64,000 nt of DNA, taken from Bryoerythrophyllum caledonicum (lineage: Eukaryota; Streptophyta; Bryopsida; Pottiales; Pottiaceae). A model generated the notes under the pieces. It saw only the letters and a list, made by a program, of their open reading frames with translations, was not told the DNA's origin and made no database searches. The stretch lies in the NCBI GenBank assembly GCA_963971425.1, contig OZ020521.1, positions 13,223,519-13,287,518 on the forward strand. The letters run 5' to 3'. Below are positions 17,708 through 47,950 of this stretch, in pieces. A program made the translations under genes and the position numbers. The stretch's first letter is position 1. Each line of letters starts with the position of its first letter.

Positions 17708-18381
17708 ATGTCCACACAAACACACAGCAACAAGGAAAGCAGAATAACGCCGCTTATCTTTGATCAGTTAGAGCCGAATGGGTCGAACTACACCAACTGG
17801 AGTTTCAACATCCGTGCCACCTTTTCTGCAGATAAGCTTGACCCTACGCTCGAGCTTCACGCGGCGGAGCAGATCCCGACTCCATACGTGTGGCAGGCCA
17901 TACTCATGATGCGGCGCCATATGGACTCAAGCCTCCCGATGTAGTATATTGCGGAAGAGAGTCCCGCTCGCCTGTGGGCTGCCCTAGAGGACAGGTTCAA
18001 GCACGAAGAAACAATCTTTTTACCTCGCGCGCAAGCGGACTGAGCGCTCTCCGCGTTCTGGACTTCCCGAACTTCACCACCTATGACTCGGAGCTCCACT
18101 GGATCGTTGCTCAACTCAAGCTATGTGGCATCCCCATCACCGAAGCCGAGCTCATCAACAAAACTCTGAACTCATTTCCTCCTGCTTGTGCCATATTATC
18201 TATTCAGCACCGGAACATGAAGTTCACAAAATACTCTAAATTGATGAAATACCTGCAGGTCGGGGAGCAGCAGCAGCAGATCCTACTACAGACAGCAGAA
18301 AAGAGATCAGCTAAGGAGATATACAACACCGAAGTGTCTCCAGCAATCATACAACTCGGAGGCGCCACGACGCACACCTAA
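17708..18381 (+). pseudogene. copia gag-like region (UBN2-type)
   Basis: The ATG at 17708 opens a gag-like frame: LEPNGSNYTNWSFNIRATF resembles the L-x-G-x-N-Y-x-x-W start of copia gag proteins. The frame stops at 17942-17944; after it come ESPARLWAALEDRFKHEET in the same frame and, following a frameshift, the C-terminal gag portion up to 18381. At least one stop and one frameshift break it, so the gag product would be truncated. Confidence 0.75.
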
Positions 18382-18391
18382 AAACAACTCA

Positions 18392-19360
18392 GTGAAACCG
18401 CGAAATCAGTGGAATAAGTCCATCTCTAGAAACCCCAGGTACGCGGGCAAAACCCGGTCTGACCAAGCGTCTCAATCTTCCACTAGGTCAGTCAAGGGCA
18501 ACTGCCACAAATGTGACAGACCCGGGTATTATGCCAAGGATTGCGGTGCATCCGAATACATCACTAACATGTACGAGGAGTTGCAAGCTCTGAAGGGGAC
18601 AAAGAGAGAATCTCACACTCTCGATGCCCCCTCCCTCACACTAACTGAGATAGATCCAGAGAATTACATGGTAAACAGTGGAGAAACCGCTAATCAGGCC
18701 AATATTGCCTTGCTTGACAGTGCCTCCACCCACACCATTCTTCAAGACCAAGCGTTCTTTGAGTTCAAAACTCGGAACGAGCCTTGGCAAATTTGTGACC
18801 TAGTCACAATCGCAGGGAAACATAGTTTCTGATTTCGTGAGGGCCGGGCACACCTAGTGCTGCCCGGGGGAGCCCCCCTCACCTGCGAACGGGCTATGTA
18901 TGCCTTTGGCGCCCCCCGTAGCCTGATCAGCTATCGGGACTTGAGGGCCAGCAAAATCCATATCTCCACTGCCCATGAGAAGGGAGGAGAATTCCTGGAA
19001 CGTAGGCGAGGGCCCAACCTTCTTGCCTTAGCCCGTGCAGGTCCTAACGGATTGTACGAGCTCCCAATTTGAGGAGGAGTTACTGACCCCATCCAGCCCA
19101 TTAGACAAGGGAGCGCAGGCCACTCCACCAGCATGTCCCAGGCCTCATTTCTCACCTCGAATCACCGTGCCGACCTCTCGCACCACCGATTGGGCCACCC
19201 GGGGACCACGATGATGCGCCGCATCATACCACTTCTATGAGGCCACGACATGTGCTCAAGTGATGCGGAGCATGTCCAGGACTGCAGCGCGTGCATCCAA
19301 GGGAAGCTGATACGCCAACCCTCGCGCTGGAAACTTCCAACGGAAATGCCGGCACCACTG
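18392..19360 (+). pseudogene. copia zinc knuckle, protease and pre-integrase relic
   Basis: The first part (to 18832) carries a zinc knuckle read as CHKCDRPGYYAKDC, in which the usual His is Tyr, and a protease active site LLDSASTHTIL, where the family has D-[ST]-G/A-[AS]-[ST]. A stop follows at 18832. Further frames read to about 19360 and include HRLGHPGTTMMRRI and DCSACIQGKL, the H-x-R-x-G-H ... C-x-x-C pattern of the GAG-pre-integrase domain. The integrase core is missing. Confidence 0.75.
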
Positions 19361-19379
19361 TTCCGACTTCAAGGGGGCT

Positions 19380-19830
19380 GGTGCGGCTCAATCACACCAG
19401 AGTCATATGGAAGCCTTCTCCTCCACCAACAGACTTATACTCGCAAGCTGCTTCGAACCTTCAACATGGACAATGCAAACGCTCTCTCAGCGCCCATGAT
19501 TGGCAAGTCCAAAATTGAGGACGATCCCTATCGTCCAGGTGAACCCGAGGAGGAGGAGATCGAGAAGCGGCAGTACTTGGCCGCTGTGGGCGCGCTGCTT
19601 TATCTCGCCACCAACACGCGCCCCGACATCAGTTTCGCAGTGAGCATACTGGCGCGCCACAGCCAACGACCCACGACCCGTCACTGACAGGGTGTCGAAC
19701 ACCTGCTGCGTTACCTAAGAGGAACTGAAGACCTCGGATTACACTTCAAGCGCGGTCCTGGTGAGATCATTGGTTATGCAAATTTAGGATTTAAAACAGA
19801 TCCCACATCCGGAAAGTCACAGACTGGCTG
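19380..19830 (+). pseudogene. copia reverse transcriptase C-terminus/RNase H relic
   Basis: The frame reads LLHQQTYTRKLLRTFNMDNA, then RQYLAAVGALLYLATNTRPD and ISFAVSILARHSQRPTTRH, the typical copia RT tail before RNase H (Y-x-x-x-V-G-x-L-x-Y-x-x-x-x-T-R-P-D). A stop occurs where a Trp is expected after the RH pair (19685-19687). The fusion to the pre-integrase remains at about 19370 shows a large internal deletion. Confidence 0.8.
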
Positions 19831-39964: not shown

Positions 39965-40417
39965 ATGTTGCGCAAGGAGTCCGTGTCTACGAAAGGCTTA
40001 CATCAGGAGGTTAGTGAAATGGCAGGGACAGAATCCAGTGAGCATGCCTCAGGGTCCCTGGTCACAAGCTCGCTTAGAGGCGGAGCCGGTGGTGCTACAG
40101 TAGAGAGCGGTAACACAAGCAGCACTGCTACTCACGCCGAGTGTTGGTCGGATGAAGAACCGGAGCTAGACCCTCATATCTGCAAACAGTGGCCCTGCCC
40201 ACAGTGCCACAAGCCCCGGGACGCTCCAGACGACGAGATGTCTCCAAAGATCGCACAATACTCCGCCGAGGCTGCAACCAGTACGCAGTCCTTCTTTGAG
40301 TCGAGTCTGCAGATGAAACAAGCTGAGGACTCCGATAATGATGATGATATGGTAGTGGATATCATTGGACCTAGTGCAGCTCATGTTACTCAGAACCATA
40401 AGCGTCACTGCAAGTAG
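39965..40417 (+). CDS. acidic protein with one H-x-C-x4-C-P-x-C-H motif (150 aa), gene B of the shared-motif set
   Basis: The function is unknown. The only recognisable structure is H71-I-C73-KQWP-C78-P-Q-C81-H82-K, identical in spacing to the three copies in the protein at 43596-44288. The rest is Ser/Thr/Glu-rich, has a DSDNDDD acidic run near residue 122 and looks disordered; the C-terminus is basic (HKRHCK). A second Met (residue 19, MAGTESS) could be the true start. The stop at 40415-40417 immediately precedes the first homology to the SOD pseudogene. Compact Cys/His spacing suggests metal binding, which is inference only. No signal peptide or membrane helix is seen. Confidence 0.5.
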   Translation: MLRKESVSTKGLHQEVSEMAGTESSEHASGSLVTSSLRGGAGGATVESGNTSSTATHAECWSDEEPELDPHICKQWPCPQCHKPRDAPDDEMSPKIAQYSAEAATSTQSFFESSLQMKQAEDSDNDDDMVVDIIGPSAAHVTQNHKRHCK

Positions 40418-41968
40418 CTCCTGGCGCCGTTCCAGGGTGTGGCGGTGCGCGTGAGCGCCCTGACCATGCTGGCCGCGCCCAAGGCCCCGTGCGCTCACCA
40501 TTACGGCTGCCACCAAGAAGGCCGTGGTTGTTCTCAAGGGCACCTCCAACGTCGAGGGCGTCGTCATGCTCCTCCGGGAAGACGATGGTGATTATTAAGC
40601 TCTATTCATATCTTGTTTTGATGTGAATAGGAGTAATCATGTCTAGTGGAGTAATCACTCTATTTTGTGTTTCTTGATGTGCAGGTTTCTCGGCGAAGGT
40701 GAATGTGAAGATCACTGGCCTGACTCCTGGCAAGCACGGGTTCCATCTTGTACGTCATCTTTCTCTGAGCTTCTTGTTGTTAAGATCTGCACATGGGAAT
40801 CTTGTCAGGGCAATGTAACAATTTTAGAAAGAGAATCCGTAACAATCCCATAGGGCGAACGACTAGGGAACATCTTGGTCATGTGTTTGCTTTTTGTGAG
40901 ATTACGTAGGGGGTGTGAAAACTGAGTTTTGGACACTGTCATTATTCGCTGGCATCTTTCCTTACTACCTTTCTTTCTGATGATTCTTTCTGATGATTCT
41001 CTCTGGTTACTGCCATTTGTGTGATTACGCTGACGAGATCTGTGTGACGATGTTATGCTGCAGCACGAGTTCAGTGACACAACCGATGGTTGCATGTCGA
41101 CTGGTACGTCGATGACCTGTTCGTTCTCATTTGGAATGCTAGTTAATTCTTACCTGGTGCTTGTTGAAGCGGTTTGCTTCTTATGGTTCGAATCAGACTA
41201 CAATATTGATATCGTCTTCATTTCGAGGGTTGCAGTTCCTCACTTCAATCGTGGAGGCAAGACCCACGGCGCTCCCGAGGACAGCAACCGCCACGCCGGA
41301 GACTTGGGCAACATCGTGGCTGGTGACCATGGTAATATCTGCAACATACATCGATGTGCTTGAAAATATCTACTTATGCACAGAATATTCATAAGCTGCA
41401 GATGACTTACGTCTTGCTATTTGAACTTCCTGCAGGTGTTGTGGAGGTTGAGCTCCTCGATTCGCAGATTCCTCTGGCTGGTCCCAACTCCGTAGTAGGA
41501 AGGGCATTCGTCATCCACAAAGTGGAAGACAATCTTGGAAAGGGTAAATTAGTGCTCCACTCGCATTAGAATCCTCCTGTTCAGATGTGAGTCTGATTAA
41601 TTAGATTGTTGCTTAAAGAAGGTCCATTAATGAAATCACCAGTGTCTCCAGATTTTTCCTGAGTATTGACGTTGTAACAGGATCGATCCTGCCATAAAGG
41701 ACAACGTCAGAGATGGTCATTTATCATTGTGGACCATAATGAAAAGGGCAATCTCTAATAGTTTCATATTGTGATTCACAGGTGGTCCACGACAGGAAAT
41801 GCTGGAGGCTGTCTGGCTTGCGGTACGACTTCTCACATCATTTACTTCAATTTTCTCTCTACATTTAGAATACAGGATTTTGCATCTTTGACATTCGTAT
41901 TTTCCATTCGGGAAATGAACTTTCCCTTTTGTGACATGTGCAGGTGTTGTGGACTGACACCACTGTAA
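40418..41968 (+). pseudogene. plastid Cu/Zn superoxide dismutase pseudogene, seven exons
   Basis: Cu/Zn SOD converts superoxide to hydrogen peroxide and oxygen. Exons: 40418-40587, 40685-40749, 41064-41103, 41236-41331, 41436-41543, 41782-41822, 41944-41968, all with GT/AG borders. Exon 1 has a transit-like segment, then [18 protein letters not shown]. Metal ligands are all present: [23 protein letters not shown] and FVIHK. Lesions: no start codon seen; a frameshift between the transit-like part and LTITAATKK; a short out-of-frame deletion in exon 6 that removes the expected HELS segment before STTGNAGG; one base missing in exon 7 (GTGGACTG for GTGGGACTG); Arg to Cys in AGG[R]LACG; and Gly to Val at the exon 3/4 junction. 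Introns are retained, so it arose by DNA duplication, not retroposition. Confidence 0.88.
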
Positions 41969-41969
41969 G

Positions 41970-43378
41970 TAGTTAAGTTTGCAAGGGTCTACTTCATCTC
42001 AAATACATCTGAATGGGGAGTTCCGTGGTCGAGATAATTTCTAGAGGTACTTTCTGCTAGAATCGCTCTGAAGCTACTTTAGTGAGGTATGCAACATTCC
42101 TGATTCTGGCTCTACTACTGTGAGGAAATCGTGCATACCAGGATGAAGCTCGTGTTTGGTAAGGGTTTGCTTCTTCTAGTAGGTGCTCTAGTACTTACCA
42201 GTAGCAATTTTGGGAGGAATCATACTCAAAGTATCTTCGGAAGTTTTAGCCTTCTTTATTCTGTAGGCTCACCCATATATATCAATAGACATTTTTTTAC
42301 ACGGGCAGAGTCCTCTGTCCTAGTTGTGTCGTGTCCTTTTAGTGACTAGACTGCGCTATAAATTTTACTACAAAGATGTGTATAAATAAGGCAGTTTGTA
42401 TTACGTCTAATGGCAGTTGGATTGTTTTTCAGTCTAGACGTGAAAGCAGAATCGGTCCAGCTTCTTTCTGAACAAGAACAGTAGAAGCTCTTGTAGCGTC
42501 ATTTTTTTTCATGTATATTTAGGAGGGTGGTAGCGAACGAAGATCTATACCAGTTATAAACATACAAAGGTCCAATGTATCTCTTCTAACAATCAATAAG
42601 TACATTTTCAATGAGATAATAGTGATGTTGTACTGCACAAGAGCACATTGACATATTCAGTCTTAATGTACCTTATCTCATGTGGAGTTTGCAGGGTGAA
42701 TTCAGTAGTGTCTTGTACAGACTGTTATGGACTACAGCAGAAATGCTGCCGAATACATATCAGTCAAGTAGCAATTCTTGGGGTACGTCAAATCAAAGCT
42801 GGCAACTTGAAAGACTTGGACAAAGTGTACATACACTGTCTTAATCTTCAGTAATGGTAGAAGAATACCCGAAAATATACTTCAAAGCTGAAGGATAGCG
42901 AATGAAAGATCCATAGGCACCAACTTAACACCAATCATGCTCAGATTCTCAGAAGTAATGATAATTTATTAAATGATTTATGGATCCAAAACAACAAAGA
43001 GTACGAAACTGTAGTACCGACTACGGGTGTCAAGAGCTACTGTGACCCAAGCCTACATCACTGACGTTGAAGCAACTCTTCCTCGGAAAAATCTGCATGC
43101 AGCATTAAGCTTTCTGTGGCCAAAAAGAAATCCTTTCATCTGGTGATCTAGCGAACTAATCTGGATGTTCTACTTAAAACTGTTGAACCTTCTAATAACA
43201 GCAAAAAAAACGAATCGGTTTCATCGTACGAATCCTTCGTCGAACATCTGCAGCACGTGACATCGGAGCCATCTTCAGCTTTGTCTCGAAGCTTGATGTA
43301 ACAAGTAACGTGAACCTTGATCTGAAACAATATGAACACCATCTGTGGGACTCTGACCTAAACAGTACAGTCTGTACG
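41970..43378. other. no gene recognised
   Basis: A minus-strand ORF at 43342-43148 follows a good acceptor (TTGTTTCAG) and reads IKVHVTCYIKLRDKAEDG then DVTCCRCSTKDSYDE. It could be a 3' exon of an unrecognised gene, but no partner exon was identified. Confidence 0.3.
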
Positions 43379-43428
43379 GTGTTCGTATATATTAAGATAT
43401 ACGAACACCATATATCTTAATATATACG
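43377..43428. repeat. compound palindrome with two alternative hairpins
   Basis: One perfect inverted repeat pairs 43384-43400 (CGTATATATTAAGATAT) with 43412-43428. A second, overlapping one pairs GTGTTCGTATAT (43379-43390) with ATATACGAACAC (43397-43408). The two hairpins share bases and exclude one another. Confidence 0.8.
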
Positions 43429-43595
43429 TCACCGTCTTTCGGCGGGCCAAATGGAGATTAAATCTCTAGGATTAACTAGTGTCACATGTGTAACTTTACA
43501 TGTAACACCCGGAAAAAGACAAGCTCTCCAAGTAAAAGAGCTCTTGATGCTTCCACTGCCGTTCATGCGTATCAAAGATATCAATGAATTGCGAT

Positions 43596-44288
43596 TCATC
43601 TATCCCGATGGCAGATGGGGCATGGGAAATATGGGCATGTGTGCCCTTTATCAGGGCATTCCAGAACTGGGACGCTGTTTTCATTATCATCAATGATTAT
43701 CATGGGATAAAAATCCTCATGAGCGTGAGAAATCGACTGCAAGTCCTCGTTCAGAGAGTCAGGTTTGGGGACGAAAATGCTCCTGCTGCGATGGCAATAT
43801 GGGCAGGGGAAGTAGGGGCACCTATGCCCACCATCGCCCTCACCATCACATGTCAGAAAGCTGTCGTTTTTTACCGATCTATGCAAGAGAACATCCCTGT
43901 CATTGGCATCATCTGCCAACAGAGTCTCTTGACGAACCACGTCGTCTTCTGAGCATATCATAAGTGCAGTCTTGCTCTCAGGAATGAAAATGCTCCTGCT
44001 CCGATGGCAGTTCGGGCAAGGGAAGTAGGGGCACCTATGTCCACCATCGCCCTCGCCATCGCACCCCACAACAGGCACTTCACTTTGGGAATCCACACCC
44101 TGACTGCTTGCATTCTTCACAGTGTACAATAGGATCCTCAACACGCGATCAATCTCGTTGCGAAGGTCCTCACCGGTTTGGCATTGATCAATGCCTTCAG
44201 CACGCTCATGACTGTTGCTGAAAAGATTTAGTTCTCCATTGCCAGCCGATGCAGACTCAATGAATGCCAAAAGTGAAGCCACAGCCAT
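43596..44288 (-). CDS. protein with three H-x-C-PYFP-C-P-x-C-H-R repeats (230 aa), gene A of the shared-motif set
   Basis: Not a family I recognise. The motif occurs at residues H84-C86-C91-C94-H95, H154-C156-C161-C164-H165 and H216-C218-C223-C226-H227, each as HxCPYFPCPxCHR. The first two are each preceded by CDGEGDGG. Repeats 1 and 2 are also nearly identical as DNA over about 85 bases (43780-43865 and 43990-44075), so they arose by recent internal duplication; repeat 3 lacks the CDGEGDGG lead and ends the protein. I chose the Met at 44288; an in-frame Met at 44315 is also possible. The N-terminus MAVASLLAFIESASAG is mildly hydrophobic and could be a weak targeting signal. A TTTATA element lies about 55 bp upstream. 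A zinc-binding or redox role is inference. Confidence 0.6.
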   Translation of the reverse strand: MAVASLLAFIESASAGNGELNLFSNSHERAEGIDQCQTGEDLRNEIDRVLRILLYTVKNASSQGVDSQSEVPVVGCDGEGDGGHRCPYFPCPNCHRSRSIFIPESKTALMICSEDDVVRQETLLADDANDRDVLLHRSVKNDSFLTCDGEGDGGHRCPYFPCPYCHRSRSIFVPKPDSLNEDLQSISHAHEDFYPMIIIDDNENSVPVLECPDKGHTCPYFPCPICHRDR

Positions 44289-44457
44289 CTGGAATAACAG
44301 AGAAGTAGCCTGCACACAGCACCGGAAGAGGCTAGAGTATAAATCGACCTCGTTCGTCGTCGGATGAAAGGGATTTCTCTGGCCGTGAGACTCTGTTTGA
44401 GGAAAGAGAAAGCCTTGTTCAGGTACGAGACTTTACAAGAGAAGGGCCAAGGAAGAC

Positions 44458-46220: not shown

Positions 46221-47950
<1,730 letters not shown>

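What the first reader, a model, noticed from the sequence alone, without database searches (positions are those of the whole stretch)
39965..44288. Possible new small-protein family with H-x-C-x4-C-P-x-C-H-[KR] motifs flanking the SOD pseudogene
Two ORFs about 3 kb apart on opposite strands (gene B plus, gene A minus) encode the same unusual compact motif: once as HICKQWPCPQCHK and three times as HxCPYFPCPxCHR. Spacing is identical in all four copies (His, +2 Cys, +7 Cys, +10 Cys, +11 His). The remaining sequence is unrelated and low-complexity, so the motif is the likely functional part. The set of Cys/His ligands is enough to bind one metal ion per copy. I know no named domain with this exact spacing.
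Basis: partly seen in the sequence, partly recalled or inferred. Interest (0 to 1): 0.75.

Follow-up and report, generated by a model that had tools for sequence, protein, structure and literature searches.

The report
Small plant HxCxxxPCPxC motif protein family
Two small candidate genes in this plant-like DNA share a short histidine/cysteine motif that also occurs in several other places of the same genome, so it is probably a real, unnamed, metal-binding protein tail, although nothing about its function has been shown.

Summary
The four motif copies lie where stated, with identical spacing, and are the only ones in six frames of the window; the core pattern arose in 0 of 200 simulated windows. 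The motif recurs in the same 437-Mb genome: a three-copy gene cluster (C), a C-terminal single copy (D), two frame-broken copies (E) and one doubtful case (F). With A and B that is 9 loci, 16 places, 10 distinct instances.

His, Cys, Cys, Cys and CP are kept in 10 of 10 instances, but the last His in only 4 (A and B); it is N, Q, R or S elsewhere. The better signature is H-x-C-x3-P-C-P-x-C-x3-R, the C-terminus in A, C and D, with H-C-C-C as likely ligands.

No Pfam or NCBIfam model reached its cut-off for the proteins scanned, and the best PDB sequence match is E 0.11. A is well supported as a gene; B is only plausible. The SOD pseudogene looks like a chance neighbour. Best reading: a small family of mostly disordered proteins with one to three minimal zinc-knuckle-like tails. 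Zinc binding and function are inferred. No other plant genome could be searched, so novelty is provisional.

The parts
43596..44288 (-). Gene A, 230-aa ORF from ATG 44288 to TGA; three motif copies, the last ending the protein (...CHRDR*)
   Evidence: longest open frame of the window, 0 of 200 simulated windows reach it; coding-like GC by codon position 0.554/0.429/0.515
44001..44039 (-). motif copy A1 HRCPYFPCPNCHR
43788..43826 (-). motif copy A2 HRCPYFPCPYCHR; with A1 part of an 83-nt direct repeat, 88% identical
43605..43643 (-). motif copy A3 HTCPYFPCPICHR, C-terminal; the copy that best matches gene D
40019..40417 (+). Gene B, candidate ORF (second ATG, ATGGCA, preferred by me; first in-frame ATG at 39965), one internal motif copy and an acidic stretch after it
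   Evidence: length alone not significant; no relative in own genome beyond itself
40175..40213 (+). motif copy B HICKQWPCPQCHK
44289..44310 (-). pyrimidine-rich stretch ending in CAG directly before the A start codon: possible 3' splice site of a 5'-UTR intron (inference)
   Evidence: sequence, read by eye

Best explanation
A and B carry a short motif, H-x-C-x3-P-C-P-x-C-x3-R, shared by a small gene family of this plant-like genome. Each copy most likely binds one zinc ion through His and three Cys (H-x-C as one ligand pair, C-P-x-C as the other), so that about 15 residues of an otherwise mostly disordered protein become a tiny knuckle. The knuckle is the C-terminus in A, C and D and is multiplied in A (three) and C (two). 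The likely use is as a docking element for a protein or nucleic-acid partner, the basic residues after the last Cys making contact. Shown: the motif, its recurrence, the shared positions and some bias to silent change. Inferred: metal binding, knuckle fold, disorder of the rest, docking role.
For: Recurrence in 9 loci and 16 places of the own genome, A, B and doubtful F included. H, C, C, C and CP in 10 of 10 distinct instances while the other positions vary. One reversed-peptide control gave 0 matches at E<=10. A tail and D tail align over the motif plus residues upstream (E 5e-8 for that single comparison; 0 of 2000 shuffles). Gene C, three copies, 258 nt: silent/replacing codon changes 2/1, 1/1 and 1/0 per pair. 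Differences by codon position: A1/A2 3/0/10 over 29 codons (P 0.0017 against one third at position 3), A1/A3 core 0/2/6 (P 0.02), C motif 1/E motif 1 core 0/1/5 (P 0.018). AlphaFold2 on A: mostly unstructured, with two three-residue strands and a short helix over motif A3, at low confidence.
Against: Members were found by similarity to the motif, so conservation of its fixed residues is partly circular. Codon-position test: of nine motif pairs, two have P<0.05 in both the 11-codon core and the longer stretch (A1/A3, Cm1/E1), four in only one of the two (A1/A2, A2/A3, Cm1/Cm2, A1/Cm2), three in neither (A3/D, Cm2/E2, E1/E2); pairs are not independent and nothing was corrected. The A-D similarity upstream of the motif alone is modest (41 of 5000 shuffles as good; 67 of 5000 against all of D upstream); C shows none to A or D there (1859 and 1321 of 5000). 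C copies 2 and 3 differ more in the CDS (12 of 309) than 300-700 nt from the ATG (5 of 400), so the contrast of CDS with flank holds only for pairs with copy 1. AlphaFold2 confidence is low (mean pLDDT 45.0 for A, 42.6 for C). B has no paralogue. No transcript data.
Confidence: 0.5

Rival explanations
1. The motif is a shortened remnant of a known zinc ribbon or finger (for example the C-x4-C-P-x-C-x3-R part of rolling-circle Rep or IS91-type transposase zinc domains, or the first half of a C2HC finger), taken up by small plant proteins.
For: Weak, sub-threshold Pfam matches fall on the motif: Rep_1 E 0.00041 (20.3 bits, cut-off 33.2) and Zn_Tnp_IS91 E 0.3 for gene C, Rep_1 also in 2 of 8 motif pieces, best E 0.01, zf-C2HC_2 E 0.016 (15.3 bits, cut-off 27) in three stretches for gene A. 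The shared C-x4-C-P-x-C spacing with Rep_1 and IS91 proteins is recalled, not taken from a call.
Against: No match reaches its curated cut-off; the best stretches cover 10 of 25 profile positions of zf-C2HC_2 and 31 of 253 of Rep_1; the hits differ from member to member. CPxC knuckles are usual in other zinc folds too (PMC4999995, passages seen).
Confidence: 0.2
2. The motif holds another cofactor or chemistry: an Fe-S cluster, copper, or a redox dithiol (CPYC as in glutaredoxin).
For: A2 contains CPYC; weak hits to glutaredoxins (PDB 2klx E 0.44; NCBIfam PRK10638.1 E 0.083 for A).
Against: CPYC is in 1 of 10 instances only; His and the first Cys are kept in 10 of 10, which a redox CxxC would not need (inference); the hits are not significant.
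Confidence: 0.15
3. Only A, C and D are genes; B is a non-coding frame in which the motif arose by chance or is a decayed remnant, cut off by the SOD pseudogene that begins right after its stop.
For: B length is ordinary for this window (131 of 200 simulations); no paralogue; SOD-like sequence starts about where B stops (by eye).
Against: The H.C...PCP.C pattern arose in 0 of 200 simulated windows; B against C is matched by 0 of 2000 shuffles, against A by 2 and against D by 13; a second ATG in ATGGCA context gives an MA- start like A and C, and like the second ATG of D.
Confidence: 0.3
4. The motif marks a secreted disulfide-bonded peptide rather than a metal site.
For: A begins MAVASLLAFIESASAG, mildly hydrophobic (sequence; no signal-peptide program was run).
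Against: Three Cys per copy is odd for disulfides (inference); His is invariant in 10 of 10 instances; B, C and D have no hydrophobic N-terminus by eye.
Confidence: 0.07

Closest known systems
Retroviral-type CCHC zinc knuckle (C-x2-C-x4-H-x4-C; spacing recalled)
   Same: About 15 residues, three Cys and one His, probably one metal ion, often repeated in one protein
   Different: Order and spacing differ: H-x-C-x4-C-P-x-C; no CCHC knuckle model is in the Pfam listings
zf-C2HC_2 (PF13913)
   Same: Short half matches in gene A, three stretches, the best at residues 159-168
   Different: 15.3 bits against a cut-off of 27; only profile positions 2-11 of 25 matched; the conserved His lies before, not after, the CPxC
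Rep_1 (PF01446) and Zn_Tnp_IS91 (PF14319) zinc-binding stretches
   Same: Sub-threshold similarity over motif 1 of gene C
   Different: 20.3 bits against 33.2 and 11.5 against 26.3; 31 of 253 Rep_1 positions matched; gene C is about 102 residues long
Treble-clef zinc fingers with CPXCG knuckle (PMC4999995, passages only)
   Same: Short CPxC turn as one of two ligand pairs
   Different: Treble clef core is knuckle, loop, hairpin and helix with the CPxC knuckle first; here the motif is about 15 residues and the CPxC comes second

Membership tests
zf-C2HC_2 (PF13913) | Profile score at or above gathering cut-off | tested here: not met
   A: 15.3 bits against 27, profile positions 2-11 of 25 only
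Rep_1 (PF01446) | Profile score at or above gathering cut-off over the Rep domain | tested here: not met
   gene C: 20.3 bits against 33.2, positions 7-37 of 253
CCHC zinc knuckle | C-x2-C-x4-H-x4-C order of ligands (recalled) | tested here: not met
   All 10 distinct instances read H-x-C-x4-C-x2-C; no CCHC knuckle model in the listings
Glutaredoxin | CPYC active site within a thioredoxin fold | tested here: not met
   CPYC in 1 of 10 instances; NCBIfam PRK10638.1 at 13 bits against a cut-off of 129
HxCxxxPCPxC family described here | H, C, C, C at 0, +2, +7, +10 with CP before the last Cys | tested here: met
   10 of 10 distinct instances, including the four of the window; selection by similarity makes this partly circular
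   4 of 10 instances, all from A and B
HxCxxxPCPxC family described here | Binds zinc | not testable with these tools
   needs purified peptide
HxCxxxPCPxC family described here | Homologues in other plant species | not testable with these tools
   No plant collection is held; viral contigs gave none confirmed with gene A or the motif profile and genome contigs none with the motif profile. The profile scans used one peptide pattern that D and F, for example, would themselves not fit.

The most novel reading that the evidence does not exclude
A previously unnamed, lineage-specific minimal metal-binding module of about 15 residues (H-x-C-x3-P-C-P-x-C-x3-R, ligands H-C-C-C), which works without a surrounding fold as a C-terminal or repeated tail, and has spread over at least eight loci of one plant genome (two of them frame-broken) on otherwise dissimilar, mostly disordered proteins.
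Probability: 0.35. Interest if true: 0.55.

Novelty: new variant of a known kind. Interest (0 to 1): 0.42.

Why it matters
If the motif binds one zinc ion on its own, it would be a very short such module with a ligand order that the libraries searched here do not name. It would also give a handle on a set of proteins that otherwise look like anonymous disordered open frames. Because the same tail sits on proteins with little or no other detectable similarity, it could also show how a very small motif spreads or re-arises in a plant lineage. If it proves to be a known plant orthogroup, the finding is ordinary.

Tried and rejected
Rejected or not supported: (1) HCCCH as the ligand set: the final His is absent from C, D, E and F. 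(2) A common N-terminal helix of A and D (T-x-E-D-L stretch): 333 of 2000 shuffles align as well. (3) An upstream Cys as a further ligand: present before the A copies at varying distance and before B, not seen close before the motif in C and D (by eye). (4) A link between the motif genes and SOD: one SOD exon as query gave, beside itself, two matches, both on C12; motif genes lie on C8, C9, C10 and C14. (5) A transposon family: A, B and D found no full-length second copy; C is a local array; E is a two-copy 98% duplicate. (6) Fold search: not run, because both AlphaFold2 models are of low confidence. (7) Literature, full-text searches of the held library of which I saw listings only: six written forms of the spacing gave 0 papers; one search gave 0 papers; 332 papers, 10 listed; 1,322 papers, 12 listed; 15 papers, 8 listed. 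No listed title or abstract start describes this motif. Of PMC4999995 I saw passages. Searches for the genome by clade or size did not identify the organism.

F (C9:20693902) is kept in the counts but is doubtful: E 0.19 and 0.082 in the two searches that link it to D. One further weak match (C8:5474342, E 1.31, one stop inside) was dropped before the count. The other rows are all places of A to F.
Full report
Observation. H-x-C-x4-C-x2-C-H occurs four times in six frames of the 64-kb window and nowhere else in it. H.C...PCP.C appeared 0 times in 200 first-order Markov simulations of the window. ORF A is the longest open frame of the window (278 codons stop to stop; 0 of 200 simulations reach it); ORF B is of ordinary length (131 of 200 simulations have a longest frame at least as long). 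Copies A1 and A2 are part of an 83-nt direct repeat, 88% identical, and a 42-nt repeat family covers all three A copies.

Where it lies. The window is part of an unnamed 437,360,962-base assembly of 894 contigs. Interrupted Cu/Zn SOD-like exons between A and B, of the chloroplast type as I recall it, suggest a land plant (inference); the species could not be named.

Relatives in the same genome. Gene A as query gave itself plus two loci on C10. Shorter queries with the motif added a third C10 locus, one on C14, one more on C9, one on C8 and a weak one on C9; searches added none that I kept. Gene C: three copies at C10:2.714, 2.733 and 2.744 Mb, encoding 101-102 residues with two motifs, GDGHRCKRFPCPICNQGRS and, as the last residues, GDGGHTCRKFPCPVCQQGR. 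Gene D: C14:12.344 Mb, 130 or 135 residues by choice of ATG, ending WPDPAHRCETIPCPVCRRR; its frame is the only one of 120 codons or more in the 9 kb fetched around it. Locus E: two copies (C9:11.725 Mb and C8:1.545 Mb), 98% identical over 2.8 kb, in which a first motif (HRCTRFPCPIC) and a second (HRCRKFLCPVC) lie in different frames; an inverted repeat with perfect 20-bp arms (read by eye) lies between them. E shares with gene C a 28-nt stretch (86%) that in C lies in the presumed 5' leader. F: C9:20.694 Mb, SHYCLTYPCPVCSNRW near the start of a 591-codon frame, doubtful at E 0.19 and 0.082. B finds only itself. One control query, the A tail reversed, gave no match at E<=10; the tool warns that an empty answer alone shows little. 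In the window and the fetched loci given to one script (236,758 codon positions, six frames) H.C....C..C occurs 16 times, each time at one of these places.

What is conserved. Over 10 distinct instances (A three, B one, C two, D one, E two, F one), H, C, C, C and the Pro of CP are kept in 10, the Pro before the second Cys in 9, an aromatic residue or Ile before that in 10 (F 7, W 1, Y 1, I 1), and Arg four places after the last Cys in 8. Less circular evidence: (a) the A and D tails align beyond the motif (E 5e-8 for that single comparison; 0 of 2000 shuffles for the whole proteins), although the part upstream of the motif alone is modest (41 of 5000 shuffles) and C shows no such likeness to A or D (1859 and 1321 of 5000); (b) over 258 nt of the three C copies the pairwise codon changes are 2 silent and 1 replacing, 1 and 1, 1 and 0; (c) third-position bias between motif copies: of nine related pairs, two reach P<0.05 in both stretches tested (A1/A3, Cm1/E1), four in one of them (A1/A2, A2/A3, Cm1/Cm2, A1/Cm2) and three in neither (A3/D, Cm2/E2, E1/E2), uncorrected. 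For C copies 1 and 2 the CDS differs at 5 of 306 sites against 53 of 394 at 300-700 nt from the ATG (the first 9 nt of that stretch are still CDS), and copies 1 and 3 at 9 of 306 against 53 of 396, which fits constraint. For copies 2 and 3 it is the reverse (12 of 309 against 5 of 400), with 11 of the 12 in the first 100 nt, so the array looks like a mosaic and the flank contrast is not general.

Gene models. In gene C a TATAAAT (L003:1212-1218) is followed closely by two ATGs (1227 and 1231) and then by none until the ATGGCG of MAHYTV at 1432 (sequence, by eye). If transcription starts some 30 nt after the TATA box, the protein starting MAHYTV is the product (inference). Gene A starts ATGGCT directly after a pyrimidine-rich stretch ending CAG, like a 3' splice site; B has ATGGCA as its second ATG. 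GC by codon position is higher at positions 1 and 3 than at 2 in A, B and C, and nearly flat in D.

Known families. Pfam: for A zf-C2HC_2 15.3 bits (cut-off 27); for B nothing better than E 0.11; for C Rep_1 20.3 bits (cut-off 33.2); for D nothing better than E 0.12; for F (536 residues) CapR 15.2 bits (cut-off 24.2). NCBIfam, A to D: nothing better than E 0.08. PHROGs, A to D: phrog_2834, unknown function, E 0.00085 for gene C over 18 residues; the rest E 0.021 or worse. PDB by sequence: nothing better than E 0.89 for A, 1.3 for B and 0.11 for the motif profile. Viral contigs gave no confirmed relative with A (21 pattern matches) or the motif profile (35), GTDB genomes none with the profile (91); the profile scans used a single peptide pattern and would miss members like D. 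AlphaFold2 models are of low confidence (mean pLDDT 45.0 and 42.6). For A the best-scored part is a helix at 39-62; over the last motif there are two three-residue strands and a short helix, in blocks of mean pLDDT 48-61. Gene C shows only a five-residue helix over its last motif, with 101 of 102 residues under pLDDT 50. They neither support nor refute a zinc site.

Reading. The likeliest account is a small family whose main shared part is a minimal H-C-C-C metal-binding tail, carried once to three times by short, mostly disordered proteins, and acting as a docking element. Metal, fold and partner are all inferred. A is well supported as a gene, C and D fairly well, B is plausible, E looks broken in its second half, F is uncertain. 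The SOD pseudogene looks like a neighbour by chance.

Novelty. None of the libraries searched names it, and six written forms of the spacing are in none of the papers searched. But no plant protein or genome collection other than this genome could be searched, so it may be an uncharacterised orthogroup already present in plant databases. I therefore call it a new variant of a known kind (short zinc-binding motifs) with moderate interest.

Noticed in passing
window 43384-43428: AT-rich inverted repeat (20 bp) about 170-210 nt downstream of the gene A stop; the stretch 43375-43430 folds as single-stranded DNA at -15 kcal/mol, z -6.1, 0 of 200 shuffles as good.
   Followed up: partly
L024:1440-1497 and the same place in L025: Inverted repeat with perfect 20-bp arms (by eye) between the two motif copies of locus E, where the second copy falls into another frame.
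   Followed up: partly
window 40418-41970: SOD-like exons on the + strand starting about where ORF B stops, with frame breaks by eye; one exon has two other matches in the genome, C12:5515316 and C12:5582437, both 83% identical over 36 residues.
   Followed up: partly
window 47608-47950: 343-bp CT microsatellite, 98% matches.
   Followed up: no
window 17842-19684: Open frames that look like Ty1/copia fragments (by eye and from memory).
   Followed up: no
L043:3852-5624: 591-codon frame with Glu/Arg-rich repeats (ERAQENSER...) and the HYCLTYPCPVC motif near its start; no Pfam family at cut-off for the 536 residues scanned.
   Followed up: partly
L003:1227-1469: A second open frame (MDEFDYIRSLQF...) upstream of and overlapping the gene C start, separate in copies 2 and 3 and fused to the C frame by a 7-nt difference in copy 1.
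   Followed up: partly
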